DNA of 60,000 nt, taken from assembly GCF_026151205.1 (NCBI RefSeq), contig NC_087074.1, positions 12,879,182-12,939,181 on the forward strand. The letters run 5' to 3'. The stretch comes from Bolinopsis microptera. Lineage: Eukaryota > Ctenophora > Tentaculata > Lobata > Bolinopsidae. Position 1 is the first letter of the stretch. The number at the start of each line of letters is the position of its first letter. The position numbers and the translations under genes are program-made. This document shows, piece by piece, positions 17,555 to 51,768 of this stretch. The notes under the pieces are model-generated. The model ran no database searches. It worked only from the letters and a program-made list of their open reading frames with translations, and had not been told where the DNA came from.

Positions 17555-17933
17555 GGGGGGAGCCAAGTGGATATTTGTAGATATTTGTAGATTAATGTAG
17601 AATGGATAATCCACGAAAAAACTGGATGACATTCTACAAATTTATACATTTATCTCCAAAAATTCAGTAGAATTTCTGGGCACATATTTGGGATTACATT
17701 TTTTGTAGATAAATGTAGATATTTGTAGATTATTGTCAATGGATAATTCACGAAAATTCTACAAATTCTACAAATTTATCTCCAAAAATTCAGTAGAATT
17801 TCTGGGCACATATTTGAGATATACATTTTTTGTAGATAAATGTAGATATTTGTAGATTATTGTAATGGATAATTCACGAAAAAAGTGGATGACATTATCC
17901 AAATATCTACAAATATCCACTTGGCTCCCCCCC
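17555..17933. mobile_element. G-capped MITE with 6-bp target duplication
   Basis: The 379-bp element begins with a run of six G and then AGCCAAGTGGATATTTGTAG, and ends with the inverted complement and a run of seven C. The flanks are both TCTACA (17549-17554 and 17934-17939). Inside, about 115 bp is repeated directly with a 126-bp period (for example from 17651 and 17777). No coding capacity. The superfamily is not assigned. Confidence 0.85.
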
Positions 17934-18096
17934 TCTACAGCCCCTTTTGAAATTCTACAGACTTAAAGAATTTTCGATCAAATCACAAAATAGTCCTTTG
18001 ATTTTAAGGGACTCCGATCTCGACTCAGATTTTAGGTTACTCAAAGTTGTACATTGAGTCTGAAACATTTCACCAGTATGTAACACTCGCTCCAAT

Positions 18097-18617
18097 CTAC
18101 AAAGTGGTCAGAGATATGGGAATCTTATCGTCTAACGTCCACTCGAAACTGCTGACGGCGACTAGACAGGAATCATCCTCCACATCTGACGGTCTCTCGT
18201 AGAGTGGCTTGTTAATACCCTGTATGCTGAGGAGTTGCAGTTCCGCGTCCGTCACACCCATTTCCTGAGGGGAGGGAATTAGGATCACTGCAGTTTAAAA
18301 AAATAAAAAACCAGTGTAATAAACCAATCGATGATCAGAACGAACATAAACTTACTCGAAAAAAACTTAATCGAAAATCAAAGACTTTTGGCTGACAAAA
18401 ATTAGGAAAAATCAGTTTCCTAAAATTAACCTCGTCAGAATCGTCAGTAAATTCGTCCTCCCCCTCTTCGCTGCCACTGTCATCCTCTTCTCCTTCGTCT
18501 TTTTCATCCACGTCTTCTATAGCTAACCTCTGATCCTCCATTGGGGGTGGTGTTATCAACAGAGAGGTTCGGTTACCAAACGTCGTCCCTTTCTTCACGC
18601 AATCCATATAGTGCTGT
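18097..18617 (-). CDS. last two exons of an acidic protein of unknown function
   Basis: Exon 18431-18617 (one base plus 62 codons) joins in phase to terminal exon 18097-18264 (55 codons plus TAG). The donor is GAG|gttaat and the acceptor follows ccctcccctcag. The peptide starts QHYMDCVKKGTTFGNRT, passes through a strongly acidic tract (DEKDEGEEDDSGSEEGEDE) and ends in FEWTLDDKIPISLTTL. A start at the internal ATG (18606) is possible, but the acceptor directly before the exon suggests more exons upstream that I could not locate. Acidic linkers next to short conserved termini occur in nuclear and axonemal proteins alike. I do not recognise the family. Confidence 0.65.
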
Positions 18618-20889
18618 CTGAAATATGTGTTCGGTGGTTAACATTTGAACAGTAAAACAATAATTATGTTGATTGAGTGATTAGTTTACTGAAATAGCAC
18701 TGTCTCAATTCTCAGGCGCGAGTGCTAAATCCGATACAAATAGGTTGTTTTGAATTTTCCAATCTCATCGAAATGTGAAATTTTAATTTCAAACCAACGC
18801 ACGAATCAGACTTGGATATTACTTGATATTACTATTTTATTACTCGCTCCCAGCTGGTGACGAGAGGTAAATTATAACTTGAGTAAAATGGCTGGAGTAT
18901 ATGATAATTTGGGCAGACTCTTCATAATGTTATGGCAATTCTATGATCATCATGTTATACTCTTTACAGCCTTCGAGTACACGCGCATTTGCAGTTCAGC
19001 TTTTAGAATTAGATGAAACTCGTTTTAATTTTTTTTCTCAAGAACATTCGATATATCGTTAATTGGTCAAATTACTCTTTAATCAAACCAGTCGGTCACT
19101 AAATTAAAATACATTATAAAACTGACGAGGGTAGAGTTTTCCAATATGTTGCAAACAAAATGTAACCTTGAGTCGCACATGTAAATGATATGTATGTTGT
19201 ACAATCTTAATGTATATGCTGTGAATGAACCCTTGGTGTGAAAGTTACGTCATTTGAATTAACCATCATATCATCGGCGGACTTTTCAAAAGATTAATAG
19301 TTCTTGGTAACTTTTGTACTGACTTTTGGTATGATTAGATGATAAACACTTCATGTAACAGTGATACATGTAACATGAGAGCATAAACCAGGGAATATTG
19401 TCCATTCTTTACTGTCTACTAAATTTCCTACCCTCATAACGAAGCGACTAGCGAGACTTTTTGAAAACTATGTCAGCCTATACTATAAAACCAGTCGCAA
19501 AATTTGAAGGAATAAAATCCTCGTCCTATTTTTTATGTCTGATTTAATGATTCAGAGGACGCATTAATTCTTGAGCTGAAGTCAAATTTTGATGTGGCCA
19601 CTTAGAACACATATAAATATTCAGACAAACATTTTCAAGCATTCGCCATTCATTAAAATTAAATCATTGATTTATAGCTTGGCGCTATCTTTCTAAGTTT
19701 CTATAACGGGAGATGCTATGCCGAATTTTTACTCCATTAATCACTGAGGTGTGTACTTTTATAGCTTTACTGTATTGATTCCAAGTGGTTGATTAGACAT
19801 CATAAATCATTCATCAACCATACTATACCGTTCATATCGCATGATAAACAATATGGTTCTTAAAATGTTAAACCACGAAAAGAATTAGATAGAATTGAAA
19901 TTATGAAAAGGTAATTGTGCATGTTTTTTGTTTTGAAAGTGCTTATTGCCACAATTTAACCGATATTCTGATCATGCTAGTTTTTAGATAACATATTAGA
20001 CCTTCACACTGCAGGAGAAAAGGTACTCTCTGTAAAGTGATGGTTAAGGCGCCTGGCTGATCGAGGCGATTTATTGCAACTTTCTCTTTTGTCTTGCAGG
20101 TAAAATCAAACCTTTAGTCGCACTCGCACGCAGTACGACGCATATAGTGTACGAAGTGCATATTGTAAAAGTGGAGAAAAATCACATGTTATGCGGTACA
20201 CCCTGTATATGCACGATCATCATTCATCATATCAGCCGACATAAATCAGCTATGCCTTTAGCGTTCATTTTACATTCCGCTTTGTTCCTTTGGTCAGTAT
20301 TATTAAAGTACCACTTTAAGTTTAACTGATTATCGTCCATGTTGAGAAAATAGATGTTGGAGTTTTAGTTATTGTTGCACGCAGGAAAGCTTCAAATTTA
20401 AAACAGTTGAAATCTTTTAACTAATTATCTAGTTGTCCTTTTGGCTATTTTAGTACCTGGCAAGTATTTAGATTTAATCTTTTATCTTATCTGTTGCCTT
20501 TTCGCGGTAATCAGAAACTATAAGTCTCCTGATACCTCATTTAATGGACAAGCAGTGCGGCAGTTATTCTTATCTGGTCGTCAATAGCCATGGCAGGTAT
20601 TATAGTAAAGTAGTAAGCAAGATAGCAATGATAGCAATAGCAATAGTAGTCATGGTATTGGTAGTTAGTTGTCCGTGGAATTCGGCAAATTACATCTATC
20701 TACACTATTGAATTAGAGAAGGCGACTTCAAGAACCTTAATTCTATATGAGGACCATTTACGAACGCGGGTGTTCTTTAAATATGACAAGATAAAATCGG
20801 AAGATGGTTCATTGATATACAATTATTTGCTTCGGTAGCATTGTGCTCAGACTCAAATTAATAAATTATAGAAGTCAAAACATGATAAA

Positions 20890-20975
20890 TAGCTGCGTGG
20901 CTCAGTTGGTAAATCTTCCTGCTTGTTAATCGCGAGGTACCAGGTTCGATTCCAGCTGAGCTACCAGCCATAGGG
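20890..20975 (+). repeat. tRNA pseudogene or SINE head
   Basis: The sequence has an A box (TGGCTCAGTTGG) and a B box (GGTTCGATTCC) at tRNA spacing, and ends GAGCTACCA. The acceptor stem pairs in only five of seven positions, and the D and anticodon stems are broken, so a working tRNA is unlikely. The tail gagctaccagcca is shared with the retroposon near 22473, which suggests a tRNA-derived SINE family. Confidence 0.6.
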
Positions 20976-21777
20976 TGAGCTACTTTTAGATTATCAAAAA
21001 ATCTAAAAGTAATCATTAGTCGAAAATTGGGAACAGTTTTTCATCTGCATGAACGTTTCTTGGAAAATTATCCCAGCTCTATGCTTCGGCAATGGTACTT
21101 TTGTGGCTAAAGACACGATTTTCAAAGACAATAATTACGGCAAAAAGGAGAGCAAATTGTCGATTACGATTTTTCAAGTCGAGTCTCGGAAAATTAACTC
21201 GCTTAGTTTCTCACCTCACTCCTAGAATTGTGCTCTGCAGGAGATTATTTTCTCAGCACTGAAAAAAAAATGTTCAATTTTTCAACTCTTGGACTAACCA
21301 ATATTTGTAATTGTATTCGAATTGGTTTTAAAGAGTATAGTCTTGAAACGATCATCATAAGCATTTGCATTTTTCAGTGGACACATGTGACATGACTCGG
21401 ATGTTCGTTTACCATTCTTAAATTTTAATTTATTTGGTAAATCTGTGGAAGTTTGTACTGCAAAAGTTCAAATGTCTGCTTTTCGTTCAAGTGCATGTGT
21501 TGTTTAATCAATTCGCAGTTATAATCCGTTACCGATTTAATATGTATTTGCGATCTATATTAATCCCCCTGATATAGGCGAGTTTGGGCCCAAGCTCATC
21601 AATATCAATATTTATCTAAAATTGATATATTATATCAATTGGGGTTTATTATGGCTTCTAAAGTTCTAAGATACCGTATCTTAGTACTATATATAAAGCG
21701 AGACGATATAGGTCGTCGAAAAGTGTTTCGATAATTTAACAAAATTAGCAGAAAAATGTTTTAAAATTTATAAAAAA

Positions 21778-21857
21778 ATCCCGGTTCGGTCCCGGTGAAA
21801 ATTCTGCATTTTAGCCGGGACCGGGACCAGGATTAAGCCGGGATCCCGGACGAACCT
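21778..21857. repeat. CCCGG-rich palindromic repeat, copy 1
   Basis: Inverted blocks of CCCGGT and ACCGGG around an AT-rich centre (TCCCGGTTCGGTCCCGGT ... CCGGGACCGGGACCAGG). Four related copies lie at 45693, 46011, 56398 and 58858. Confidence 0.6.
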
Positions 21858-22462
21858 TGAACACAGGCCAGTGTATTGATAAACTGTTGAACCCTATTAG
21901 ATCTGATCTCTGCGAATGATGCGTTTCTTAATATTTGCGTTTCTTTATCTTCTGTTTAGGCTCATTGCTCTTAGTATAATAACAAATATATGATCTACAA
22001 CCGCATGGTGCATGACGGAACAGGTTTAAACATTTTGTAACGAGGAAAAGTCGATCAACTTGATATTATCAGTTGCGATCATGGCCACAACTCTCTATAA
22101 GTCATATCTTACTATATAGTATATATGAAGCGAGACGATATCTGAAACTATGGTTGGTGTAGCTAGTTGGGATAGTAAAGGAATTCTAGTTCCTACAAGT
22201 TGGGAATGAGGTTCACAGATCACCCTCTAAACCTACAAGGAAATATTTCCTGTAGATCCTTGATATATAAGCAACATTTGACAGAGGCATCTTGTGGAGT
22301 GAGTTATGTGCCCATCTTTGGCTAACTCGGTGAATGTCCTTGCTGTACGGCAGTGTTTAACAAGGAACTGAAACAGAGGGGTTCCGTTCAGGCCTTTCGC
22401 ACTTTGTTTCTGTCTGGTTCTAATATACCGTTTAAAATATAATATATATGTTTATATATCCG

Positions 22463-22818
22463 TACCATTTTAGCTGAGCTACCAGCCATGGAGTGAGCGT
22501 CGTTGACGCTCAGCTAAGGATTACGTGTGATCTATGCAGCCCCCCGGTACACTCAGCCGAATACCCGAGAAATCAAGTGTGAGGGTTGATTAATGAGGAG
22601 ATGCCCATTGCAGTAAAGTCTCGGGCGAAGAAAGTATGGTATTGGTACACACTACCTTATTAAGTGACCTTAACCGTCACGGCGTCACTGGCCTAATGTA
22701 TAATTGAATCCTTTGGCTTCCTATAATATTAATTGGCTGGTTACACTTGTGTAACAATGTGGCTGTTGTAATGTCCGAAGTAAAATAAAGTGTGAGATAA
22801 AAAATAAATAAATAAATA
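22463..22818 (+). mobile_element. SINE-like retroposon, 5' truncated
   Basis: It begins within the tRNA-like 3' region (GAGCTACCAGCCATGGAGTG) and runs to an AATAAATAAATAAAT tail. The combination of a tRNA-related start and an A-rich simple tail is typical of SINEs. Boundaries are approximate. Confidence 0.5.
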
Positions 22819-23227
22819 TGAAATTGTAGAAGATTGGGAATAACGCACCAGATGGCTTGACTTTTTAATCGAGGATCATTATGATACGACGAAGCTACGA
22901 ATTTTAAAAAGAAGTGATGCAGAACAAGTACAACACAGGTGCATGATAGTTCCGTTAGTTCCCCTCATCTTATACAACAATTTTCATTTTGTAGATCTGT
23001 AAATGATCACTGTATTCTGACTCACTACTCAGAAACAACATTTAGTAAAATTTAACAAAAGTTACCAATCTTACATTTTTTAGTCCTTGTCTACCGTCTG
23101 ATTTTACGATTTACAGATCACAAAATTTGGTGTCGTGATGTAGATACTTTGTACGTGAATAATGATATTTAATCTTGATCCATTTTTAGCGATGCAAACA
23201 GTATGATAAGGTAAAAGTAATGGAGGG

Positions 23228-25339
23228 ATGATTATACAGAATCTACTAGTTCTTGTTCTTGGTGCCTATTTTCAACAAGGTATTTTAATTTCATAGTGAT
23301 GAGTTTATTAATGTTAAGTAGATTTATATAGCCAGAAATATAATTGGTCGCACTAACCTTAAGCCTAAAAAGAGGCTATTAAATGAAACGTTAAATGAAA
23401 CGTTCTACTTCTCGACAATCGACAGAAACTATCAACACTTCCAGGTCAAAGTCAAGGCATCAAACTTGAATCTCAACAGAGGATATGTGGCATTCTTCGA
23501 CACATAAAAACTAACAAATGTGTAAGGGTAATTGAAGAAAAGCTCACCTTAACACCCACCAATTGTGATTCAGTGCACCAACAAAACATCTTCTGCTACA
23601 ACACTGCGTCACGGCTAATAAGTAACATAGACGTAAAGCACACCGAGAGGTACGTAGGAGTGGGAGAAGATGACGTCACTCTGGGTATAGGCGGAGAAGA
23701 GGGTACTGAGTGGCGTTTGAAAGATGATGGATCTATTCAGATTGCCAGCGGTTCGGAGGTTCTGTGTTGGACTCCAATGTCAGATGGCGACGGAATTATA
23801 TTGAATGACAAATGCAAGGAAGAGAATAACTTGTTCGATTTACAGCTTCAAAAGTCAGGTAAATATCGCCCAGCAATGTTATGATTCTCAGATCATGCAT
23901 GACGGTTGATCCAAGTTTATGTTTAATTATGTGGTCTTGCGTGAACTAGTGCAATCTGCACTCTGCAAGAGGCCGAGGGCAGCATAATGTGAAGATTTGC
24001 CACTGATTTAAAGATTGCTGACTTACATTGACATCTTTTATTCTTTTATTAGCTTTCTAATTAATATTTATTCTCAGGAGTAGAACCAATCTTCAAAACA
24101 AGAAAGAATTTTCCTTTAAGAATCAGTGTCAAACAGATTAAGAAGCTGAATAACACTTGGTCAAAACCGTATCGATTTCACGTTAATTTGAATTTGTTCT
24201 CGAAAAATTCCGACGATAGTTTGGGTATTCTAAAGCTACAAGGAAGATATCTCAAAAGCAACTCAGAAAGGTACAGGAAACTACCTCAGTTTTTCCGCCG
24301 AAGACCATACTTAAAATTTGCCTTCTTTTTGGCTTCACCACCCGAGGAATAATCCATCTTAATTTTTCATTCCATTCCGGGATCAAAACTGTTAAATTAA
24401 GACGTTTTCCAATTTCAGTGATGCCTCGTTAATTCTGGTTAAATGGAATGAAAATAGCTCATCAAGATGCACATCTAACCAAGAGAGTGTTACGGGTTTC
24501 TTCCGAGTCAAAGTAGAAATATGGATTGATTCAGCAGGAAACTTGAAAGTAACCTGGAACGGCACTGACGTGGAGTGGCCTTGTCAAGTGGAACCAGTTT
24601 GGTCTGACGTGACTGAAGCAAAGGTTACCCTGGTTAACCAGATTCAACAGCAAGATATTAATGCATTCAATCCACCCGAGAAACTCTTTGACATTAGTTA
24701 TAGTAACAGACGAATTCCAGCAGGTGATACAAATTAGCTCTATACGTTTTTCCACATCATGAAATACGAAGATGTTTATATTTATAAACATCTTCGTATT
24801 CCAAAAATTATTGACAAAAAATGTCGTAAAATATTGGGACTATTTTACGACATGTCATGTTACCTTTTAGATAACTGTATTATCATTTAACATCGAAGGT
24901 CTTTATTTATATCAGGGCTATTGGTCATTTTATAATTAACCCTCCCTGGTTTTCTTCTTTCGAGAATCACAGAGTTTAAGGGGAAAATGCGGGAGTAAAT
25001 GGAGCAATGACCGCCCAGGTGTCAGGTAGGTATTATTGAGTTCAAGTTACTACTAATCAAGGATCATGACAATTACGACTACTCTTCTGATTTGATCTTC
25101 TCCACATAACGTTAATAATTCCATGGTAACTCACAACTCACAACGAAGTACAGAATCTGACAGTAGTAATTGTCAGGGCGTCTGATTCAGTGAGTAATTG
25201 CGAGAACGCACGGAATATCACACTTTCAGGATCTACCAAGCCAGCTGGCGACAAAGCCAAATTATTAACCAATAGTTGTGTTTCTGGGTTTACCACGTTC
25301 TTATTAACTTGTAGTGGTGTTGCTGATATCAACACATAG
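23228..25339 (+). CDS. secreted protein, ricin-B-like N-terminal region
   Basis: Six plus-strand exons fit in phase: 23228-23279, 23445-23858, 24078-24270, 24419-24723, 24965-25018 and 25149-25339, giving 402 residues plus TAG. The first exon encodes a signal peptide (MIIQNLLVLVLGAYFQQG). Exon 2 has a beta-trefoil look: KCV near the start, then YVGVGEDDVTLG, EWRLKDDGSIQIASGSEVLC and ILNDKC, the G.I/C.L/W spacing seen in ricin-B lectin folds. The rest is Cys-poor beta-like sequence with several N-glycosylation sites (NNT, NGT, NIT) that I do not recognise. The exon 6 acceptor (acgaag) is weak and chosen because it keeps the frame open. A second secreted-protein gene starts 215 bp downstream on the same strand. 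The likely role is extracellular carbohydrate or ligand binding, which is inference. Confidence 0.7.
24763..24853. repeat. two intronic stem-loops
   Basis: Perfect 18-bp arms (AATACGAAGATGTTTATA and its complement, 24763-24780 and 24783-24800, loop TT) are followed by a second perfect stem of 13 bp (24821-24833 with 24841-24853, loop 7). Both lie in the intron after exon 4 of the secreted-protein gene, 40 bp past its donor. Confidence 0.9.
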
Positions 25340-25474
25340 GTTCTTAGTTCTTCATTTTACCGTCAATAAGTAGAATTAGGTAAATTAGTAGCAATATTAG
25401 TTTTAGAAAAGTTGAAATTTTGTTTGTTTGTCCCAAGTTTTCTTTAGCTTTATCTATATCAGTATATCCTTAGC

Positions 25475-27924: not shown

Positions 27925-30900
27925 TTAAACTATTGTATTTTCAGGTTGGTGTCTTCTGCAAAAGACCATACAATTTAAGGGACAGTTACCGTTCAATGTC
28001 GTTCCTAAGAAGTTGAACTTCACTCTTCAGCCAAGAGTTTTGTTGAGCTACAGTATAGTTCCTTGGGTCAAGCAGTTGGATCGCTCTCTGATAAGAAATG
28101 TCTGGTAAAGACAGCTGTTAAATAACAATATAACATTTCATCTTTAAAATGTTAACAAATGAGAAACTAGAACTCGTAATAAGTGGGATTTTGACATTTT
28201 CATTGGGAGATTTTCGTATTAGTCTACTTTATACTTACATCAGTAGCCTGATATTTTTGGGAGTCAACTTTTGAAGCAGTATCTTTGCTGATTTCATCGA
28301 GAGTCAAACGTAAATTCTTTTGGATGTACTTAGCATTTTCATCAAACGAGTCGTTGATGTCTTTGATTGCACATTTCAGAATGTCAATGTTCTTTTTATG
28401 TAGTACACTTCCGTTGTCCTATCGATGGAAAAACAATCAATTTGAGGGTTTTATTTTTCTCTCTTCGATACATCGAATACATTACCATAAGATAAGCACA
28501 AAGTGAAAGTGAGTTTCCATTAAATAATCTATATCCCGAATATATTGCAAGTGGTAGGATTAAATTGGAATTGGAGCGGGAAGCTGTCGCTCAGAAATGA
28601 TAAGAATGAGCTATCAAGCTGTCAAGCAGTAATATAGACCAATCCTCAAATCTGGTCACGGTCCATTACATGCACGCTGCACGTGGCCTTGTGCTTGTTT
28701 GGGCTCATGAATATGTCTACTCAATTCACGCGTGCGCGGCTCAGAATATAACACACTGAGAGCTTACATTAGAAAAGTTAATATCTTTTCTATTACCGCG
28801 CGCTCTCTAAAATCTCTTCGGTAGACCCTTTTGATGGTATCCAAGGGGATTGGTTGATCCGATTAGAGGATTCATACTATTAGCTGTACAATGCCATATC
28901 AGTTATCACGATGAGTAATGACATAATACCATTATCAGGAATTAAACTACATTTTCGAAAAGTTTTCAATCCAACAGATTTTCTACGGACGAATTCTTTA
29001 GCCATCGCAATCATGTAATCAAAATTTTACACTAAGTTCTTCCCTCTCAAATAATTTACCTTGTAATCAATAAGCTCTGCTTTTTCTTGCAAAGTTTCGT
29101 CTGTTCTCGCTTGCTCTGCATCACATTTTCCTTTCAGTTCTGCTTCCTCCGCTTGAAGTTTTTGTGTGGAGACTTGTTTTTCCTTAAGAGCAGTTTCAAT
29201 CTTAGTCTGAAGCTCGGTTAGAGTATTCTGGTAGTCTGAGTCGAATTCTTTTGCTGCTCTCATTGATTGTTTTACATACTGCAACTGTTGCGCTTGTAAC
29301 TTCTGCGTCTGAAAAATGTATCGTTGACGAGAACTATGCATATTACACCAGGAATGAGGAAGTGTAGATAAATAATAACATGAAATAAAATACAAGTCGC
29401 ATATAATGGATTATGGAGCTACTTATGATATACGTAAGGTCAGAAAAGCCACTTTTACCGGGTTAGTAAGAACTTCAGTGTTATTTTATTTTGAGATACG
29501 AACATAGATAGTCATTGTGCATGTGTCGTGTAATATCTAACAGGAAATTTTGACAGTGATCTCTTCATTTCCTACAGTAATCCGAAGTAATTGAGTAACT
29601 TAATTAAGTGTTGAAACAACCATCAATCTTAATTATCGTTAGCTTTTAAAAGTTGGTCGACTCGAGTCGTTCAACCATTGTACATTTTTTTGCTCGTGAC
29701 ATCGCTTGTGCGACTTGTTTACTTTTAACACGAGACCAAGAGCTTAGTTTTGATCATGAGAATGATCGTGATTTTGTTGGCTACAACTCTTGAGATAGTT
29801 CAGGGACTGCAGACTTTTCACATTGGATTTATTGCTGATACGGATAATGCAGAACTCGAACAAGTGTTTACTGGAAAGATAACACAACTGAATAACAAGA
29901 CAAAGGAATTCCAACTAGTTCCTGTTGTCACAAACAAAAATTCCACTCATTTTTCGTCGTTAGACGTACAGGAGCAAATCTGCAGTTTGGTAAACAAAAT
30001 GAATATGACAGTAGTCGTCGGACCTCTAAACAGAAAGCATGTGGCAGATACCTCCAACATGCTTTCAATTCTTGGCATTCCCAACATAGTTCCAAAACGT
30101 CCAATTAGACTCGGACGTTTTAAGGGGAATTTGTGGAGTTCTTATCAGATCAACCTGGGGATGAAACCTTCAAAAGCCCCATTTGTGGAGTTGTTCAAAT
30201 TGTACGACTGGAGTAAAGTGACGGTGGTTTACTCGAACGACGACTATGGAATGTCAGAAATGATCGGAATTGTTGAGGCAGTTTCTGATGATAACTCGGT
30301 GACTGTTGTGGAGGAGATATCAATACCAGTTAACAATGATAATGAACAGGATTGGGTCGATGTTGGGCTCAGGTAGGTTGCAATGATGATTCATGTTTTT
30401 AAAACATTTCTTTATACTAAATAGATCTTGCTGACAATATAGAATGACTGTAAAGAACTGGTAAATTCTAGAACTCTCGATTTGCATGGAGATTAACTGT
30501 TTCTCTAAATACTCTAAATCGCAGATGATAATGTTAAGACGAGCTAATTAATTAATTCTCACAAAACTTCAGGTTCAGAAACAGAATAAACGTAAGAGCA
30601 AGGACCTTTATACTTTGTGTATCAAGTAACGTGCTGCTGAGAACACTACACACTGCAGCTCAGGAGGGACTGGTTGGAAACAACTTCTACTGGATTTCCA
30701 CTGACACTGCCTTAGATAAAGCATCGTACAACAGTACGACGTTACCTTGGTACATGGCCGGTGTTGTGGCAGTAGGTCCTGATGTAAACTTCAGTGAAAG
30801 TGAAACGGATCTCCCCAATACTTTACACAAGGGTTCACTGGTGTTGGACAGTGTGGAACTAGTTCACAGAGCTCTTGCTGGAAATTTTGAGATGTTGAAA

Positions 30901-33368
30901 AAGCTCGATTTTCATGAGTACAATGAGGGTTGTACCTTTGACACGACGTTCATTGTCCCATACAACTTCAGGTACACACTCTCGAGAATTCTAAAAAATA
31001 CAACTGTGTTCGGCAAGACAGGAACAATTAAACTCGACAAACACGGAAATCGGATAGAAGTGTCACCTCGCTTGGGAATTTACAATTTTGTTGGAACAAA
31101 TCCCAAAGTCGTTAAAGCTGGAGTGTGGAATGGCCGGGAATTAGAACTAAGCCGAGACCTGAAATTTTACTCTGATTTCCAAAGAAAACGACGTACCCTC
31201 AGAATAGGTTTGATCCGAGATGAGCCTTTTGTCTTCTACGACTATCTGAACCGGGGACAAACCTCGTGTCCGACATCTGGGATCCAAAAAGATGACAAGT
31301 CTACCCCACCATGCTATTCCGGAATCATGATCTCACTCTTCGGGGAACTTTGTCGGAACCTCAACTTCCTCTGTACCTATCACGAGTCTAAAGACGGGAC
31401 ATCCGGAATGTATCATGATGGAATGTGGACAGGGTTACTCGGGATGCTTGACAACGACGAGATAGACATTACAGGGATCCCTTTCGCACAGACACTATTC
31501 GTCTAAAGGTAGCTCACTTCTCCACCCCAATACTCGATGGTGGGGTTTACATGGTGCTGAATCCTGCCGAGCAAAAACAAAAGAAGGGGTTTAAAATCGG
31601 ACAGTTCTTTTCTTCAGGGTATAGCAATGATGGACTCTTGTTTTTGTCCCCTTTTAGTTTCCTGCTGTGGGTCTCTATCGGAGTAGTGTGTCTTTCTCTC
31701 TGGGTTCTGGTTTGGATTTTTGATAGATATTCTCCGTATGGACATCGTGGAGGTTTGGTACAGAAGTTGAACACTTGTAATTGTGAGCAGTGTATGTATC
31801 TCCCCATGTCAAAAGAACAGCAATTGACACTCTGTCAATATAGTCCTCTAGATGGTGTGAACGAGCGTTTACAGGAAATGGATTCACTAAGCTCACTCTG
31901 GATGATGGTCAGCTCAATCGTCCAAGTGATCCCAATGCCAACTGCTCCCCGGAGCTGGAGTAGTCGACTTGTTGCAACCAGCTGGTGGTTAGTGTGTCTG
32001 ATTATGGTGGCCATGTACTCAGCTAACCTCACTGCCACCATGACCAGGTCGAGCGTGTCTCGAGCTGTCAGAACTGTCAACGATCTCATGAGATCTGGAT
32101 CAGGTATCTCATTTGGCACGGTCAACAACTCAGTTACAGAACATCTGATCCGTAATGCAGAGGACTTTACTCTCAAGGAGTTTTACAGGAGACTAAGTTA
32201 TGTTGACTCCTTCGATAAAGGTGTCAGTCTGGCAAGGAAAGGATCCTTTGCGTTCTTATCCGAAAAAATACCGCTACAGTATGAAGCTCTGAAACCGCCA
32301 TGTAATCTGTACGTTACACAGCACAAGATAGTTGATTACAGCTACTCACTGCTCTACAACAAGAGACTGAAGGACCGTGAAGACATCGACAAAGGACTTC
32401 TATTGATGAAGGAGAACAACATGTTACAACGTTTATGGTACAACGTCAGCCACTCTAAGGATCTGTGTGACCATTTTAATCCTGTAGACTCGATAAAACC
32501 ACTGGAACTTGGTGTAATGTCAGGGGTGTTTGCGCTAGCTTTTACAATGATTGGGGTTTCGATAATATTGTTTACACTGGAGGTGATGAAAAGCACGAGA
32601 ATTTCGGAAAGCACATTTGTTAACAGAATCATTGGGTGCTTGAGGAAAAAAGATGGAACTAAACCAAACGGAAGAAGTTCTAAATCCATAACTGGACAAG
32701 AGGATCAAACCACAAATTGTTTAAAACCAGAAACTGAGCTGCTACAGTAGAGCAGTAGACACTTTTCAATACCAAATTTCCTCCTGCTAGTCACATTCAA
32801 TATAGACTCTTTAACTAAACATTCATTGATATTATTCAGTGATATTTTAATCATGTCGTATTAAGCCACTGCATTATATTGAATATTAACTAGCCACATC
32901 TTTTGATTGTAAAACTTCTCTGAGATCTACAAATGGCACAAGACAACTTGAAACCAACCTTCTCTTTGCTTTCTTCATTTTCTACCTTAAGTTGCACAAT
33001 TTCGTCTCTAAATGCCTCGATTGTCTTAGTCTTAACTTCGATCCTGAATAAAACAAAAATTAACAGCCCATCAGGACACCAATTTTTAAAAACAAAACCA
33101 AATGGCGAACAATAATTTTACTGTTAGTAAATGAGCTATTGATTTATTTGAAACAGTTTCCACAGCAGCTGTGATAAAATATTTTGCTGTCAATTCTTAA
33201 CAAGGATAGTAACAAACTGTTTGGAAAGCTTGTCATGGGTACTAACTGGAAGGAAAGAATCGATTCAGCGACTGAGAGAGGTTCATCCTTGCCTGGTTTG
33301 TGGCTTACTTCTCCGCCTGATCCTTCTTCTCCCCCTTTTGTCTTCTTCTTCTTTCCCTTCTTAGCCAT
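27925..33368 (-). CDS. coiled-coil protein with lysine-rich N-terminus
   Basis: Seven minus-strand exons: 33309-33368, 33202-33245, 32959-33043, 29060-29308, 28239-28418, 27990-28087 and 27925-27955. The sum is 747 bp, 248 residues plus TAA, with every junction in phase. The second exon (44 bp) is weak in coding character but exactly supplies the phase needed. The N-terminus is MAKKGKKKKTKGGEEG, as in several axonemal and basal-body coiled-coil proteins (BBOF1, CCDC166, DRC12). The body is a continuous coiled coil, for example LQAEEAELKGKCDAEQARTD. The C-terminus is LLRNDIERRHQPENTIV. A ciliary role is an inference from the N-terminal style only. The 3650-bp intron between exons 3 and 4 contains the whole glutamate receptor gene on the other strand. 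Confidence 0.75.
29756..32750 (+). CDS. ionotropic glutamate receptor, frame broken once
   Basis: Exon 29756-30372 starts with a signal peptide (MRMIVILLATTLEIVQG) and continues in phase at 30573 after an intron. About 930 residues. Order: amino-terminal domain (20-400), ligand-binding S1 (from RIGLIRDEPFVFYDY, about 414, to EIDITGIPF), M1 (about 560-585), intracellular loop with CNCEQC, pore loop (SLWMMVSSIVQ, Gln where the Q/R site falls), M3 with MYSANLTAT, S2, and M4 (about 850-880) before a short tail. These are the hallmarks of tetrameric glutamate- or glycine-gated cation channels. The frame shifts near 31485-31505: one frame ends LFV-stop, another continues into TIRLKVAHFSTPILDGG, which carries the conserved ligand-binding Arg. 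One missing base (or two extra) explains it. A pseudogene, a polymorphism or an assembly error are all possible. The rest of the sequence is uninterrupted. Confidence 0.93.
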
Positions 33369-43535: not shown

Positions 43536-43560
43536 ACCCCCCCCCCCCCCCCCCCCTCGC

Positions 43561-43866: not shown

Positions 43867-43910
43867 TTATCACTATAGTCTCACGATGCAAACGTTGAGT
43901 TTTTACTTTC

Positions 43911-44043: not shown

Positions 44044-44275
44044 AAAATCAATTAGGGCTTGTGCTGATAGGAGAATAATGATAGTGGGGAATGTGGCAGT
44101 GTAAATATGAACCTGGAATTTAGGATGTGTGGCTCATCCATTAATATTATTATTAGTTGCCGCTAGTCTGTGCCCAGTTTGTTCTGGCTTTTTTGTGTAC
44201 AAGTATTATATACATATCATAGTTTATTTTTGTAATATCATATAATATATAGTACGTAATAATAACCATATCACT

Positions 44276-44346
44276 AATAACTAATTAACTAATTAACTAA
44301 TCAACTAATTAAATAATTAACTAATTAACTAATTCACTAAACTAAT
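44276..44346. repeat. microsatellite (AACTAATT)n
   Basis: About eight units of AACTAATT with minor variation. Confidence 0.85.
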
Positions 44347-44579
44347 AGGGGGGCAGTAATATGACCGTTATATCCAGTAACTGTCAAACCCGTTGTTATC
44401 TTCTTAGTCCTGGAATATTATGTAATAGGAAACTGGGCCACGTGTCATTGTCATTTTCACTCTGCAGGTTCAAGAGCATGCGTTTTGTAGCCGATTTAAA
44501 AAGGTTTATGGAAAAAAGTTTGGGTAGGGCCGGGTGCTTACATTTGCATTTACAGCATAAATTGAGAGTAAAGGTTCTT

Positions 44580-45355
44580 TAAAGAACAAGCGAAAATCTG
44601 AAATATGTGGTGTTGCACTCGGCTAACCAGGAAGCTGCAGTCACGTGATCTGAGTTTGCAGAGGGTGCATTTTCTGGGATGGTCATACGGATTTGTTGAG
44701 TGACTGAGCTACGGAAGTGTTTGTTTCGGTGCATGAGAATTAGTGTGTTTTTTACAATAACACTGTGCACGGTGAGCATACCATTGTCATTGAAAAATTG
44801 TTTAGTGTGCTCTGGCAGTCGACCGTCTTTGTAAAAGTAATTAATGTAACCTGGCATTACTGCAGATGCAGATTGCAGCCTGATACCCTGTTTTTGTCGT
44901 GAGAAGAGTGATTCAGTATGATTTTTTGCTGCAAACCCCCATATAATTGAACAGAAGTTTAAATGCGATTGAACAAAACTTTGATATAAATGTCAATATG
45001 TTCATTATATGCAAGCCTCTTGATTTATAACTGTAGCCTTATTTGAATCGGTAGGTGATATAATTCCTACAGTAGGTGACATAATTCCATCATTTTTTCT
45101 AACAGCTGCGATATGCTTAGACCATGTTAATTTATCATCCATTATAACGCCAAGAAACCGTGCTTCCCTTTTACGATCTAATTGTGTGTCTGCAATATGA
45201 ATATTTGGAGTATTGTCAGTATTTCTAACACCGAAAAGCATATAGCAGGTCTTTTTTAGATTAAGTGAAAGTCCATCACAGTCAACCCAGCGTACAAACT
45301 CGTGGGAGAATTGGTTGAATTTTGTATCGTGTGCATTTTTACCTTTTATTAGATG
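44580..45355 (-). pseudogene. LINE reverse-transcriptase C-terminal half
   Basis: On the minus strand the frames read LSLNLKKTCYMLFG, then ARFLGVIMDDKLTWSKHI, then QSHLNFCSIIWG, then LILMHRNKHFRSSV. These are, in order, the late reverse-transcriptase motifs and thumb of non-LTR retrotransposons. Frames change around 45000-45060, where a short duplication (VGIISPT after DGIMSPT) lies. No endonuclease domain or catalytic YADD remains. It sits between the two LTR-fragment copies. Confidence 0.75.
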
Positions 45356-45358
45356 TTT

Positions 45359-45692
45359 AAAGACAAATACTACTGATAAACATCCTGACTCATATACTGA
45401 TGTAATCTAGCAGCGTGGCTAGAACTATGCCAACAATAATTGATAGGTGAACTGTGCTCGGTTGGGCCTGGGTAACACTAAATCCCAGTCTTGAAACCGT
45501 GCCAGATTATCTGACATTACTAAAATATTGCTCGTGATTGTTAATCACCCGTCTAATTGTAGATGATGGTTATCACTGTAATAGTCTGGAGGTCGCAAAC
45601 TTGCTCTGTTCCTCAACCCATATCGTGGTTCTGGTTCCGGTATCTCTTGATCACTTGATGGTTCTGTTCTCCAGCATCCAGCTGATCTGTGC
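45359..45692 (-). pseudogene. LTR-retrotransposon 3' fragment, copy 2
   Basis: Second copy of the sequence at 43561-43866. The minus frame contains PEPEPRYGLRNRASLRPPDY and ends with LQLDG-stop. It is cut at 45692 by a CAGTAATCG-ended element, since the uncut copy continues into ttatcactatag. Confidence 0.6.
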
Positions 45693-45850
45693 CCAGTAAT
45701 CGACCGGGATTCCCAGTACCGGGAATCCCGGTACCGGGATTGGCAATTATGAGCTATCCCGGTCCCGGTCAAATGCTGATTTATGATCTCGGTCCCGGTC
45801 CCGGTTAATTCAGGATTCTTGGTCCCGGTCAATCACTCAAATTTGCCGGG
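45693..45850. mobile_element. CCCGG-rich hAT-like end, copy 2
   Basis: Begins CAGTAATCGACCGGGATTCC and continues as alternating CCCGGT and ACCGGG palindromes. The CAGT terminus and its insertion into a known repeat mark a transposon end. Assignment to hAT rests only on the CA terminus. Confidence 0.6.
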
Positions 45851-46010
45851 ATTTTGGCCTGGATCTTTTACATAATTTCATTCACTGTGATTTTAAGTTT
45901 TTCCTTTCATTCATTTTGAATTTCATCTTTAAACATCCTCTGAGCCAAATAAAACAATGTTTAAAATTGCTAAACAAGTTTGAGTAATAAATTATGATCA
46001 TGAATTAACC

Positions 46011-46141
46011 AGTAATCGGCCGGAATTCCCGGTACCGGGAATCCCGGTACCGAGATTGGCAATTTTGAGCTATCCCGGTCCCGGTCCCGGTCAAGTCACA
46101 TTTTTCATCCCGGTCCTGGTCCCGGTCAAATTATGCGGATC
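46011..46141. mobile_element. CCCGG-rich hAT-like end, copy 3
   Basis: Begins CAGTAATCGGCCGGAATTCC, the same terminus as copy 2 with two differences, in the same orientation 318 bp later. Confidence 0.6.
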
Positions 46142-46645
46142 CCCCAGACAACCATAACACGAGGTTAACGAAAATATGGAATATAATAACCCCTAACTTA
46201 AAAATATTTGATTATTCTGTTAGTATTTCTTGCCTGAAATCCACTTGCCAACCAGCATTGTCATGCCGTGCCAACCAGCATTGCTGCATTGTCATGCCGT
46301 GTATGACTGGACAAATACAGATTTTGATATTATTAACCTTAAAATTTCGTAGGCTCCTGTAGGGATTCCACCTGACCTCCAAAATTTCATGACCAAATCG
46401 ACTTACTCTGCCAGCTAAGCGTATTCCAGTTGAATGTGATGTGTGAGTGAGTAAGTGTAGTGTAAAGAGATCCTATTTTTGTATCCAATTTGAATTCTAA
46501 TAAAGACCCTAAGCATTATGATCAAATTTTTAGTACAATAGTTATATCAGGGTTGACATCTATGATTAATATTATAACCCAACATTCATTTTTTTCTCCC
46601 CTAAATTTAAACCCCCGGCCCCCAATTAAGACATTTAGCCATGAT

Positions 46646-47472
46646 GGGGGGGTACCAATGGCATAAAATGGCATAAATGGCATACGTTTTATGGCATAAA
46701 TGGAAATTTTTATTGGCCAATTCTCCATTTATGCCATGAATTTAGATCTTCATATTTGACCTTTAGGATGACTTTAAATTCGCAAATTATTATTAGTACT
46801 TGAATAAGAGACATGTTTCATGCTTTATAACGCTTGGCATGATCGTTAAAGATTCATATGACAAATAAAGAAAATAGAAATGTATTTTATCAAACGGGGG
46901 GGGGGGGGGGTACCGATGGCATTTTATGACATAGAATGTCATAAAATGGCATAAATGGCATACGTTTTATGGCATGGTTGGTAATATACTCAATGATGGG
47001 AGTATAGTGTATTGGCTATGCCCCGCTTACTAGTTTAGCTCTTTCTAGTCCCCTGCTACACGGCATGTAAACAGGGATTGGCTAGTTAGAGGCGGTCCGT
47101 GTAGGCCTTACACTGTGCTTTCAGCAATACTCATAAGTATTTCCGTGGCTGTGGTTGCAATGCGCCTAGTCTACTGGAATGATTCTTCGGAATTTCGCTG
47201 GATTGTACAACTTTCGTCTTGGTAGATTCCAAACACAAGGAAATTTTCCTTCTGGTTGGTAATATACTCAATGATGGGAGTATAGTGTATTGGCTATGCC
47301 CCGCTTACTAGTTTAGCTCTTTCTAGTCCCCTGCTACACGGCATGTAAACAGGGATTGGCTAGTTAGAGGCGGTCCGTGTAGGCCTTACACTGTGCTTTC
47401 AGCAATACTCATAAATGGAAATTTTTATTGGCCAATTCTCCATTATGCCATTTATGCCATTGGTACCCCCCC
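46646..47472. mobile_element. G-capped element with nested insertions, 8-bp target duplication
   Basis: Begins with seven G then TACCAATGGCATAAAATGGC, and ends ATGCCATTGGTACC then C run. Both flanks are GCCATGAT (46638-46645 and 47473-47480). A second internal cap (15 G, 46896-46910, then TACCGATGGCAT) shows that two copies or a rearranged copy are joined. A terminally repeated insertion lies at 46975-47414. Confidence 0.8.
46975..47414. mobile_element. TRIM-like element with 162-bp direct terminal repeats
   Basis: Two copies of 162 bp (46975-47136 and 47253-47414), identical as far as I can see by eye, begin TGGTTGGTAATATACTC and end near AATACTCA. They enclose a 116-bp non-coding interior. 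Layout and TG...CA ends fit a terminal-repeat retrotransposon in miniature. It interrupts the G-capped element: the empty sequence (ATGGCATAAATGG) is present at 46687-46702. A target duplication is at most 3 bp (CAT), which weakens the LTR interpretation. Confidence 0.65.
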
Positions 47473-48291
47473 GCCATGATTTAACACCCAAAATACTTAC
47501 CGTCCTTAATAATTGTAAAGACCATTTGTTACAAAATAGCTTATGTCCCTAGAAGGGTGTTCTGCTAACAGTTTTCGACTGACTTGAATGTCCTGCACAG
47601 CAGATTGAAGCTTCTTAAATTAATTTTTATTCTTATTGTATTGCTGTGTAAATTTGATTCTAATTCTAATTCTAATTCTAATAGCTGCTAGAATAGTACA
47701 TGCCAAATATTCCCTCTTACACCCACAAATTATAATGCCTTCCTATCAACCAGACTAGCGTTCTGGTGTGTACAAAAGCTACCAGCCAGTACATTCCTTG
47801 CCCCGCTAGTTGATTGTCAAAAAACCATACAGCTCAGAACAAATGGCCATTTACTACTAAGAGCATTATATGTTTTCATTTGTTTACATTTTATGCTGTT
47901 TACTCTCCTGTACTTCTAAAAAACCGCTCCATCGATCACTTTCTACTTTAATTATTTAATTCCGTTAGAGGAGTACTCGCAGTCCCTAGCCGTGTACTTG
48001 TTAGAGCAGTTTATTAGAGAAACAGGTAACATTGCATAGTTTATAGTGTGTGTCACTGATAAAATCAGTGATATTTACGGCAGATGCCAGATCCTGTAAT
48101 AAAACGGAATCATAGCTTATAATATTTTTTATAGATTACAGCGGCTACACTTCTAAATTTGCTTCGCACACACCATACACATTTGTACATTCCAATTTCC
48201 ATTGATAGATATATTCGCACGTGTGCGCGGCTCTGATCACGCCACAGCCCACAATTTATTGGCAAATATCATATTAGAGACACACCGAATT
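47473..48291. other. repeat-rich intergenic stretch
   Basis: Contains a short TTCTAA microsatellite near 47655-47683 and the second copy of the dispersed repeat (47906-48007). No exon. Confidence 0.5.
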
Positions 48292-48696
48292 GGGGGGGGG
48301 TGTAACCCAAAAAAACCCAACTCCTACCCAAGAAAAGGTAATACTGGGATTGGGTTTTTTTGGGTTTTTTTGGGTTTTTTAAACAAAATTTAAACAAAAT
48401 TCTAGCCATTTCATTAATTGTATTGAATGTGAATTATTTCCCACTGAGTCTTACCTACGTGTTGTTCTCATGTCTTAACTTAATAGATAGTTTACATAGT
48501 AAATAAGTGTGTTTATAATTATATTGATAGTATGTTATCACGATAGCAAACAGGATGTCTCGTTCATTGAGATATAATCCATATGAATGCACAAAGTGGA
48601 AATGTGCCAAACGTGGCAAATGTGTTCTCCTGTCATGGAAGGAGGCTGTGACGAAGGTCAAGGGCAAGTCAAAGCACATGACTTAAATAACTTGAC

Positions 48697-49880
48697 TTAA
48701 GGCGGCTTCAGAGTCCGAGTCTCGATGATGTGTCTCCAAATCTTTCTGTCCGCCATAAGCTCCTTAATCTCCCCAGTGTTCTTGAGTCCAGTGTCACTTA
48801 TTAGGTTATCGACGAAGGTGAGCGGTGGTCTACCCCTCCCTAGGTTCCCAAAGGAGAAGTTGGTGTGCTGCCAGGTCATCATGTCGCTGGATGTGCCCAG
48901 CCAACCTCATTCTTCTGGCCTGTATCTTCGAAATAACTCTTGGGAGTGATCCAAAGACCTCCTTGTTGGTGCGATGTCCTATCCAGTCCACGTTTAGGGC
49001 CATCCGAAGCATTCTACTGTAACATCCGTCTATTCTTTTCTTCAAAGAATAGACGGATATTATTGTCCACGTTTTCGTTCCATACAGGAAGATTGATTTA
49101 ACCGTAGCTTGAACAGACGGATCTTTAAATCTCGGCGCAAATTGGACCTCCATATAGCCTACATTTTGTGGTAGGCAGCCCATGCCTTGGCCTTGCGTAA
49201 CCTAAAGTCGTGCTCCGTTGTACTAAAATCCTCAACTTCTTCTAAGGCATGTCCGTCCTTAGAAATTATTGTGTGTGGCTCCTCTCCTACTAAATTAACT
49301 GTAAGATGCTTGGTTTTAGACAAAAAAGATTTCATGCCTCCTCATCAGATGAGGCTTCTGTAGGACTGTAGCATGTGATGACAGTGAGCCTGGGCTTTCC
49401 ATTAAGAGACATGGTGAGGATCCTTGCGCTGTAAGATTTTATAACTTTATAAGACTTATAGCCTCGTATATGCGCTGCTGTCCTCGTCAAGATGATTTCT
49501 ACTCTCCCATTAGAAGCGCCAGCTGCGTTTCTATTCTGGTATTCTCAGCAATCAGCATGCACTACCCGATGTTCGATTCTTGCAGGGCAAGGATGTGCAG
49601 CTTGCTTCCAGAAAATAGTTCTGCAAGTTCGATGCGTTTGTGCTGTTCTCTGGCTGTTCTTATGTTAAATGTGCTAACCTTAGCAGTCCTTTTACATGAT
49701 ACAATACAATTGATGTTCATATTTTTTTGATGTTTTCTTGTTTGACTTTCTGTAGAAATAGGTTGTCGTGTTGTGGAGACCGAGTCATCAGCTTCTGTAA
49801 TAGCAGCGTAATTACCCCGGCAACCACTTCCACTAGAAAAATAAGGGGCTTTAACCCTTAAGCTGTTGATAAACTTCATC
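48697..49880 (-). pseudogene. internally deleted LINE (endonuclease start joined to RT end)
   Basis: Minus strand. From 49880 the frame has KVSTFNIRTAREQHKRIELA and ILALQE, the start of an APE-type endonuclease. A later frame has RLTVITCYSPTEASSDEEA. The next recognisable parts, from about 49330, are already near the reverse-transcriptase end: RLRKAKAWAAYHKM, SIFLYGTKTWTI, RMLRMALNVDWIGHRTNKE, RRMRLAGHIQRHDDLA, and then LTFVDNLISDTGLK with a frame change. The catalytic core of the reverse transcriptase is absent, so it cannot move itself. Confidence 0.85.
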
Positions 49881-50805
49881 TTGACTTTTCAGTTGGCTCA
49901 CAATCCTGTGCAGTCCCCTGCACATTAGCAGTGGATTGTGTTCTTAACTCTTGCGCCACTAAAAGGTTAAGGGCATCCGCTTGAACAAAAGCCATCTTTA
50001 ACTCTCACCATAATATCTTGGGTATCTTGAGCATGTAATTGCACGAACATATGCTATACAAGACAAATGTGACACTTCCTTTTTCTACCCAACAGCATCA
50101 GTTGTAATCCTTACCCAATCGTCACCTGCTCTAGTGTGGGACTTTCCGATTTTATTCCAAAGCATAAGGAGGTTAGAGTGAGAACAGAGCTACACTTTAG
50201 CGGGGACTAACCCTTCCCTTGACTACCTCGTTACCCGGTACCCCGGGCATAGGGAGCCGTATCCTGACTACCAGAGTGTGGTCCAGTCTAGCTGGGTCAT
50301 AGTAGACTAGGTTGAACAGGGTAACAGCCAACACCTCTTAAGCTACTGTGCAATCCACAGTAAAGATTTACGAGTCTCAAAGCCTCTTGTAGACCAAGAG
50401 TTAAGGAGTCAATAGATCAAATTATTGAACTTCCGGGGCTCAATGTCTCCCGTCGACCGTCCTGCCTTTAGCCTGGACCCCCTGTCCAGTATCCAGTCTT
50501 CACCACGCGGAGGTAGTGGCTTTCATCATGCTATCGGATGAGTGTCTGGAAGAGGGCACCAGCAGGATACCCCTTTTCAAAGTTCTGGGAGCCTCACATC
50601 AGACCAGGGCTTCCACCCAGCTTCTATCCAGCGGTGACGCCTTGGGCCACCTAAGCTTCACACAACCATTGAAAGAGTGACCACCTGCCTACTTGTAAAA
50701 ATTTTGACGATGTGATTATTACAGTCGAGGGTCTGTTGCTGTACATTCTCAGTGTAACAGCTGACAACAGTTATCAACACTTTATGCCCTGGCTGTTTAC
50801 ATCCG
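49881..50805. other. probable LINE 5' region, non-coding
   Basis: More GC-rich than the surroundings, with no open frame of note. It lies directly upstream of the endonuclease remnant in its direction of transcription, so it is probably the 5' untranslated part of that LINE. Confidence 0.4.
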
Positions 50806-51316
50806 ATGCCTGCAAGCAAACTTTATGCTTTCCTGCGCATAGGCCTCCATGCAAGCATTAGAACTTATCTGTGTTCTAAGGATATGTTGGTTGGCATGGG
50901 CAAATCAAACCGTTCCCTCGAGCTTGATGCACTCGGCAAAAGTTTGATCCCTGTAACAGTTGCCCACCCTCGCAACAAGCTTGTTATACCGCATCCGAAA
51001 GCATAAACTATATAGAGGTAAAGATACTTCAATCTTAAGATTGTTACAAGCTGTGAAGAAGGGAGTCTCAAGGGGTAGAGAACTCCTTCAAGAACACTAT
51101 AGCTTCGAAGGAGAGGCTTTCCAACCATCTTCTGACGGAGCAGAGAGTGACGAAGCGGAAACAGATGATGAAGAAGAGGAAGTGGAGGATATTGACTCAT
51201 CAGAGGAATGGGAGAAAATAGCAACTGTGTATGGTAATGCTCTGCATCATGATACGACTGTTGAGGTTTGCCTCAATGGAGGGCGAGATCGAATGCCATC
51301 CCAGTCAATATTTTAG
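50806..51316 (+). CDS. two overlapping short frames, unknown
   Basis: Frame 50806-51006 (DALGKSLIPVTVAHPRNKLV) overlaps frame 50960-51316, which has SRGRELLQEHYSFEGEAFQP and then a strongly acidic tract. They may be one protein with a frameshift near 50960-51000. They lie inside the G-capped composite, so could be a remnant of its own protein or a captured gene end. No family recognised. Confidence 0.35.
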
Positions 51317-51768
51317 CGACTCCAGGGCCATAAACAAGCGAAGATATCACTTAATATCACATGTGATCATGCAGCTGATGTTGTAGTGATGAACCACAAC
51401 AGTGATGTTGTACTGATAATTGTTTTGCTAGGTGCCTACATGATTTTATTTCCTTCAAATTAAAAATTTGTAAAAAACCCAAAAAAACCCAACTCCTACC
51501 CTGAAAAAGGTAATACTGGGATTGGGTTTTTTTGGGTTTTTTTGGGTTACACCCCCCCCCCCCCCCCCCCCCCCCCCCCCGAATTATAGACCAAAATGTG
51601 TCTAAGAGTTTTATGTAAACCACACTTGCTTCAGCATTTCTGCCAAAATTTGAGTGTGCATCACCGGAACTTCGAGATTTGCGTGAATTGTCGAGTTGTA
51701 CAGACAGATCCGTCTGATAAAATCGATCTGCCGACACACAAAGCTTACAAAAGATTTGTGTCTTAATA

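What the first reader, a model, noticed from the sequence alone, without database searches (positions are those of the whole stretch)
17555..51580. Transposons capped by homopolymer G/C runs, three families
Three elements with unrelated inner sequences all begin with a run of G and end with a run of C directly at the target duplication: 17555-17933 (flanks TCTACA), 46646-47472 (flanks GCCATGAT) and 48292-51580 (flanks GAATT). Cap length varies from 6 to 29 bases. Behind the caps the ends are AGCCAAGTGG, TACCAATGGC and TGTAACCCAA. The flanks are different lengths (6, 8, 5). I know of no transposon family defined by G-run termini of variable length; a cap added or expanded during movement, or a shared transposase that recognises G runs, would be new.
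Basis: partly seen in the sequence, partly recalled or inferred. Interest (0 to 1): 0.75.

Follow-up and report, generated by a model that had tools for sequence, protein, structure and literature searches.

The report
Jumping genes capped by G runs
Three different mobile DNA elements in what is probably a comb jelly genome all end in a run of G because they belong to one group of cut-and-paste transposons with related transposase-like genes, and the varying run length looks like ordinary copying slippage rather than something added during a jump.

Summary
In detail: all three elements have inverted ends starting with a G tract, between target duplications. In 83 sampled copies of five families, 162 of 166 ends carry G5 or more. 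A and A' were fetched mostly by capped words and so are biased; B (52 of 52) and C (33 of 36) are not.

The families are not unrelated. Longer copies of A, B and C, and two further capped families, carry pieces of homologous proteins. The fullest ORF (766 aa) has no meaningful Pfam, NCBIfam or PDB match. A shared transposase group with G-tract ends is supported; caps added in movement are not: two B copies at one satellite position, best read as one duplicated insertion, differ in cap length, and expansion rises with starting tract length. The host is probably the ctenophore Bolinopsis microptera. Repbase could not be searched, so a new superfamily is possible but unproven.

The parts
17549..17554 (.). 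target duplication TCTACA, left copy of element A
   Evidence: read; matches 17934-17939
17555..17933 (.). element A: 379-bp non-autonomous MITE, 33-bp perfect inverted repeat starting GGGGGGAGCCAAGTGG, right cap C7, inner GTAGATATTT-type repeats
   Evidence: 90 copies of the end word in the genome; long relatives with transposase-like pieces
17934..17939 (.). target duplication TCTACA, right copy of element A
46638..46645 (.). target duplication GCCATGAT, left copy of element B
46646..47472 (.). element B: non-autonomous copy, ends G7 TACCAATGGC / C7, ATGGCATAAA-type repeats behind the caps
   Evidence: 210 end words in the genome; 8-bp duplication in 23 of 26 copies
46896..46910 (+). second left end inside B: G15 followed by TACCGATGGC
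   Evidence: no matching right end or duplication seen
47473..47480 (.). target duplication GCCATGAT, right copy of element B
48286..48291 (.). target duplication CGAATT (5 to 7 bp possible), left copy of element C
48292..51580 (.). element C: 3.3-kb non-autonomous copy, ends G9 TGTAACCCAA / C29, GGGTTTTTTT-type repeats behind the caps
   Evidence: 139 end words in the genome
48833..49180 (-). fragment inside C matching P0003, an ORF found in other C copies (read by eye as a non-LTR retrotransposon piece)
   Evidence: tblastn of P0003, 94%
50758..51313 (+). decayed piece of the shared transposase-like protein (C-terminal part)
   Evidence: tblastn of P0002, 96% and 85% identity
51580..51585 (.). 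target duplication CGAATT, right copy of element C (its first C may instead be the last base of the cap)

Best explanation
The three elements are non-autonomous members of one group of cut-and-paste DNA transposons. Shown: each has terminal inverted repeats whose outermost part is a G tract (family baseline about 5 to 9), followed by family-specific repeats; each is flanked by a short target duplication (commonest length 6 bp in A and C, 8 bp in B and E); and longer copies of A, B and C, and of capped families D and E, carry homologous coding pieces of one large protein. Inferred: that protein is a transposase with an RNase H-like fold (motifs SIDAT, GDGD, D..H..KK.RN and SD.NEQ.FA.IR), it holds the family-specific inner repeats and cuts at the outer edge of the G tract, so the tract is the conserved cleavage-end motif. 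Tract length then drifts by replication slippage after insertion, more so the longer the uninterrupted tract.
For: Caps and duplications in 83 copies, with mispaired controls. TNNNNA preference: T first in 21 of 23 and A last in 21 of 23 of the A/A' copies with a perfect 6-bp duplication. Homology: B and C proteins hit the same third loci; P0004 matches A' (E 2e-45), E (3e-42), B (3e-30), D (3e-16); direct A'-B 3e-26, A'-C 3e-8, P0004-C 8e-9, B-C 1e-4. 13 single-element pairs of A' ends 3.4 to 5.2 kb apart each enclose a protein hit. Empty sites: two B copies sit in a satellite whose unfilled word occurs 83 times in the same locus. Cap change in place: those two copies lie at the same satellite position, are 99.7% identical over 3.0 kb and full-length nearest relatives among those compared, yet have left caps G7TGGG and G19 and right caps C9 and C11. 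Expansion follows baseline: ends with 10 or more: E 0 of 6, A 4 of 42, B 15 of 52, C 16 of 36, A' 24 of 28. Specificity: 0 of 7 other inserted stretches in C copies begin or end with a G-run cap (one of the seven shows no duplicated flank).
Against: No intact full-length transposase was found in families A to E; the fullest ORF (P0004, 766 aa) sits in an element with only GG at its left end, C9 at its right end and no clear duplication, and its C-terminal part is separated by retrotransposon-like sequence (by eye). C's link is the weakest: P0004 did not hit the three C copies in the comparison at 1e-4, and B-C direct is only 1e-4; C is tied in mainly through D (35% over 164 aa, E 1.6e-27). The RNase H assignment rests on motifs read by eye; no family library or PDB search supports it. 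Duplication length is not fixed: three A copies fit only 7 or 7-8 bp, two C copies only 7 (or 3) and one only 4-5; 13 of 83 copies show no perfect 6-8 bp duplication. No capped inverted-repeat pair was found around the relatives in L094 and L095, though each has isolated G runs. The L087 pair could be two separate insertions of close relatives at the same satellite position; only 1 of 1040 coding columns sets both apart from seven other copies, and a third copy (L077) is 99.4-99.6% identical over 1.8 kb.
Confidence: 0.78

Rival explanations
1. The cap is added or lengthened at each transposition, for example by untemplated synthesis on the cut end, so cap length is a product of movement.
For: Caps vary widely between copies (0 to 59 uninterrupted bases) and lie exactly at the junction.
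Against: Modes are tight and family-specific (7 in A and B, 8-9 in C, 5 in E). Cap lengths differ between two copies that look like one duplicated insertion. A single A interrupting the tract in family A goes with short caps (median 7), while the uninterrupted A' has medians of 14 and 12. Other long C runs occur in the window away from these ends, while A and T runs never pass 9.
Confidence: 0.08
2. The elements belong to an already described superfamily (for example P, hAT, KDZ/Zisupton or Novosib) that diverged beyond the searches used, and G-tract ends are a lineage trait. This is compatible with the mechanism above and concerns classification.
For: 8-bp duplications are typical of several of these; hAT lineages with 5-, 6- and 7-bp duplications are known (PMC12730594, passages). 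The D..H..KK.RN and NEQ.FA.IR motifs recall P and hAT catalytic motifs (recalled, no call).
Against: No Pfam match at E up to 10 apart from weak hits to unrelated families; one P-type model found nothing in this genome, but nothing in the 14 control genomes either, so that test is void. A hAT-looking element inserted in a C copy starts CAGGGTTGCC, not with a G tract.
Confidence: 0.45
3. The elements insert into existing G runs, so the cap is target sequence.
For: Long G/C runs occur elsewhere in the window.
Against: The runs are inverted (G on the left, C on the right); a poly-G target would give G on both sides of the same strand. 83 empty sites beside the L087 insertions hold no run.
Confidence: 0.02
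4. Cap lengths are mainly homopolymer errors of the assembly.
For: Homopolymers are error-prone in long reads (general knowledge).
Against: Errors cannot create tracts at conserved ends of many copies, nor easily explain why A/T runs stay at 9 or below in the window. They may add scatter to individual lengths, the L087 pair included.
Confidence: 0.05

Closest known systems
hAT superfamily
   Same: cut-and-paste, inverted ends, duplications of 5 to 8 bp by lineage (PMC12730594, passages seen), zinc-finger-like N-terminus by eye
   Different: hAT ends (YARNG, recalled) do not fit G tracts; no hAT Pfam match
P superfamily
   Same: 7-8 bp duplications and D(2)H..K..RN plus E..F..R motifs (recalled)
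   Different: no P-type Pfam match; ends recalled as CATGATG-like, not G tracts
Kyakuja-Dileera-Zisupton
   Same: 8-bp duplications in Zisupton and Dileera (PMC12730594, passages)
   Different: no KDZ Pfam match at E up to 10; Kyakuja has 7-bp duplications, CA..TG ends and no inverted repeats
IS3EU
   Same: 6-bp duplications and inverted repeats longer than 30 bp (fungal families)
   Different: ends TAYGG..CCRTA (PMC12730594)

Membership tests
Cut-and-paste DNA transposon with inverted ends (and MITE derivatives) | terminal inverted repeats | tested here: met
   33-bp perfect arms in A; paired inverted end words for many copies of A, A', B and C (the listings stop at 100 places)
Cut-and-paste DNA transposon with inverted ends (and MITE derivatives) | target site duplication of constant length per family | tested here: inconclusive
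   Duplications are present. B 23 of 26 at 8 bp, E 3 of 3 at 8, A' long 7 of 7 at 6, A 13 of 21 at 6, A' short 3 of 7 at 6 (4 of 7 at 7), C 11 of 18 at 6: one length dominates in B, E and A' long, less strictly in A, A' short and C
Cut-and-paste DNA transposon with inverted ends (and MITE derivatives) | encodes a DDE/RNase H-like transposase | tested here: inconclusive
   shared large protein with D, D and E-like motifs by eye; no library or structure support
hAT | hAT domains in Pfam | tested here: not met
   no match at E up to 10
hAT | YARNG termini (recalled) | tested here: not met
   the capped families begin with G tracts
P superfamily | P-type transposase domains in Pfam | tested here: not met
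   no match at E up to 10; the genome search with PF21787 found nothing but also rang in no control genome, so it adds nothing
Kyakuja-Dileera-Zisupton | KDZ transposase domain in Pfam (PF18758, named in PMC9297572) | tested here: not met
   no KDZ match at E up to 10
Novosib | sequence relation to Novosib transposase | not testable with these tools
   no reference sequence held; Repbase not searchable

The most novel reading that the evidence does not exclude
These families form an undescribed superfamily of eukaryotic DNA transposons, present in a ctenophore, whose transposase requires a terminal G tract; each insertion therefore plants two G/C homopolymers that later expand by slippage and scatter hypermutable G tracts over the genome.
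Probability: 0.4. Interest if true: 0.65.

Novelty: new variant of a known kind. Interest (0 to 1): 0.5.

Why it matters
If the group is a new superfamily it adds a transposase lineage in a phylum near the base of the animal tree, with an unusually simple end motif (a pure G tract) shared by families whose inner ends differ. It also links mobile DNA to G/C homopolymers: ends that start as 5 to 9 G become tracts of up to 59. The ready-made comparison of interrupted A with uninterrupted A', and the probable duplicated insertion, make cap slippage directly measurable.

Tried and rejected
Classification: Pfam, NCBIfam (67), PDB by single sequence (32) and by profile (52), IMG/VR (55) and one P-type Pfam model in the genome (60; void, as no control genome rang) gave no placement. 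Weak hits of the group's proteins (Astro_capsid_p E 0.083, Molybdop_Fe4S4, Fer4_18, c-SKI, DUF4902 E 0.01, DUF7291; two NCBIfam hits at E 0.12 and 0.15; five chance-level PDB chains) lie below the curated cut-offs or at chance and are unrelated. PHROGs and PADLOC were not searched.

Papers: searches were seen as listings; none listed a transposon group defined by G-run ends (search 50 found no paper at all). From PMC12730594, PMC9297572, PMC11797021, PMC10232365 and PMC12221973 I saw passages, and section 9 of PMC12221973 whole. No claim is made that the group is absent from print beyond these searches.

A possible 22.7-kb A element (C2:17801005-17823705) looks like two inverted copies of a duplicated stretch. 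The FLYWCH ORFs in L069 and L093 were set aside as belonging to other insertions (for L069). Structure prediction was not run: its stated rule names window sequences and loci from other tools, not these genome loci, and the window holds only a C-terminal remnant.

Rows left out of the 83-copy count: L071 (same element as L059/L060), the first L087 copy (interrupted left cap), the A copies L072/L073, the one-ended loci L075-L086, L088, L091 and L093, and the P0004 element.
Full report
What was checked. The three elements were read in the window. Each begins with a G run, ends with a C run, and lies between copies of a short duplication: TCTACA (A, 17555-17933), GCCATGAT (B, 46646-47472) and GAATT (C, 48292-51580). 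For C the C run ends next to the duplication, so CGAATT and CCGAATT fit as well.

Host. The genome held for the window has 264.65 Mb in 232 contigs, a contig C1 of 26,206,493 bases and a contig C11 of 20,825,282 bases; window GC is 38.3%. Table 1 of PMC11797021 (passage) gives Bolinopsis microptera 265 Mb, 13 chromosomes, largest 26.2 Mb, N50 20.8 Mb, GC 38.5%, but 346 scaffolds.

Copies. End words in the genome: A 90 (84 of them have G6 or more directly outside, by hand comparison with the 88), B 210, C 139, and A', a form of A in which the interrupting A base is absent so that the G tract is unbroken, 97 (that word demanded G5). I fetched 20 A, 24 B (four of them chosen for length), 10 C end pairs and 8 long C copies (one the same element as a pair), 7 short and 7 long A' copies and several loci with the protein. 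These are a minority of the copies, taken mostly from the top of the listings; A and A' were chosen mostly by capped words.

Caps and duplications. In 83 distinct copies (A 21, A' 14, B 26, C 18, D 1, E 3, window copies included) 162 of 166 ends have an uninterrupted G tract of 5 or more. B (52 of 52) and C (33 of 36) are free of selection for the cap. The four short ends are one E end (G4) and three C ends, two of them interrupted by an A and one C3. Duplications, letting up to three bases of a cap belong to the duplication: B 23 of 26 at 8 bp; E 3 of 3 at 8 bp; A' long 7 of 7, A 13 of 21 and C 11 of 18 at 6 bp; A' short 3 of 7 at 6 bp and 4 of 7 at 7 bp; D one copy at 7 bp. Two of the three B misses (L024, L039) show an 8-bp duplication by eye with a cap interrupted by an A. 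Mispaired flanks match in 0.7% (A, 6 bp), 0.3% (B, 8 bp), 0.9% (C, 6 bp) and 4.8% (A' long, 6 bp). The 23 perfect 6-bp duplications of A and A' mostly read TNNNNA: T first in 21, A last in 21. Thirteen of 83 copies have no perfect 6 to 8 bp duplication.

Shared protein. Long B copies carry a 344-346 aa ORF, a long C copy a piece of 186 aa. Searching the genome with each found its own family and, in both cases, the same further loci, such as C9:15607322-15607966 and C5:18466330-18466980. Those two loci (L088, L093) show one G/C-run end each of a family D, and L092 has both D ends and a duplication ATACCCC. A family with a 521-aa open frame at seven places, one of them with a stop, is E: ends G4-G5 / C5-C6 before T(A/G)ATGCAACGACC, and 8-bp duplications in the three copies examined. 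Another family found with the B protein has the A end with an unbroken tract: this is A', and 13 single-element pairs of its ends 3.4 to 5.2 kb apart each enclose a protein hit; a fourteenth pair in that range, at C3:8306636-8310221, is two small elements. So the A MITE has long relatives with the same protein. Alignment scores: P0004 to A' 2e-45, E 3e-42, B 3e-30, D 3e-16, but no hit at 1e-4 in the three C copies of that comparison; A'-B 3e-26, A'-C 3e-8, P0004-C 8e-9, B-C only 1e-4; C to D 1.6e-27 over 164 aa. The fullest ORF, P0004 (766 aa), lies in a 7-kb element with inverted CCAACGCCCTAAAAGGCC ends, of which the right has C9 but the left only GG, and no duplication was seen: an exception to the cap rule. 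Two further relatives, L094 and L095, show no capped inverted pair, only isolated G runs.

Mechanism. Motifs shared by the fullest sequences are (S/A)(I/V)D(A/S)T, DGD..(L/M)R, D..H..KK.RN and SD..EQ.FA.(I/V)R.G...GR (read by eye). Their order resembles the D, D, E order of RNase H-like transposases (recalled). I infer cut-and-paste transposition with the G tract at the cleavage edge. Family-specific repeats behind the cap would give specificity, the cap the common end. No assay or structure supports these steps yet.

Cap length. Three lines favour slippage in place. In L087 two B elements sit at the same position of a 31-bp satellite; the copies are 99.7% identical over 3.0 kb, with their surroundings 98.9% over 3.9 kb, yet the left caps are GGGGGGGTGGG and G19 and the right caps C9 and C11. 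They are each other's nearest full-length relatives among the copies compared, so one duplicated insertion is the likeliest reading; two separate insertions of close relatives cannot be excluded, because a third copy is 99.4-99.6% identical over 1.8 kb and only 1 of 1040 columns is private to the pair. The same locus holds 83 unfilled sites without any run, which also shows that the cap came with the element. Second, expansion depends on the starting tract: 10 or more bases in 0 of 6 E ends, 4 of 42 A, 15 of 52 B, 16 of 36 C and 24 of 28 A'. C runs of 10 to 30 also occur in the window away from these ends, while A and T runs stop at 9.

Is the cap special to this group? Seven other inserted stretches in C copies, including a hAT-like one (CAGGG ends, TACATAGT duplication), have no G caps: 0 of 7, one of which shows no duplicated flank and may not be an insertion.

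Known or new. No family library or structure collection places the protein, and the paper searches listed no group with such ends (seen as listings). But named superfamilies without a Pfam model would be missed and Repbase could not be searched, so a diverged member of a known superfamily remains about as likely as a new one.

Noticed in passing
window 43537-43556, 55861-55890, 58550-58559: Long C runs (20, 30, 10) not at the ends of the families studied; could be slippage or ends of further capped families.
   Followed up: partly
L087 (C5:19873800-19883700): 31-bp satellite array with two B copies at the same satellite position; the unfilled site word occurs 83 times.
   Followed up: yes
L095:3879-4011: A 133-bp G16/C7-capped MITE-like piece inside a gene for the shared protein, without a clear duplication by eye.
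   Followed up: no
L088, L092, L093: Family D loci hold long TCCTCCTCAGTCC-type minisatellites next to the protein piece; similar sequence occurs in A' long copies L098 and L099.
   Followed up: no
L069:2757-4376 and L093:3875-4453: Stretches with a FLYWCH zinc-finger ORF (Pfam E 7e-10 and 2e-12); the first is an insertion with an 8-bp duplication and no G cap.
   Followed up: partly
window 29729-32750: ORFs that read like an ionotropic glutamate receptor gene (by eye, not searched).
   Followed up: no
window 56552-57421: 289-aa ORF with a cysteine cluster and GQT...NGH motif, perhaps a GIY-YIG endonuclease of a Penelope-like element (by eye; only a weak SLX1_C hit).
   Followed up: no
window 6906-7379: Minisatellite open in several frames (repeat [13 protein letters not shown]).
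   Followed up: no
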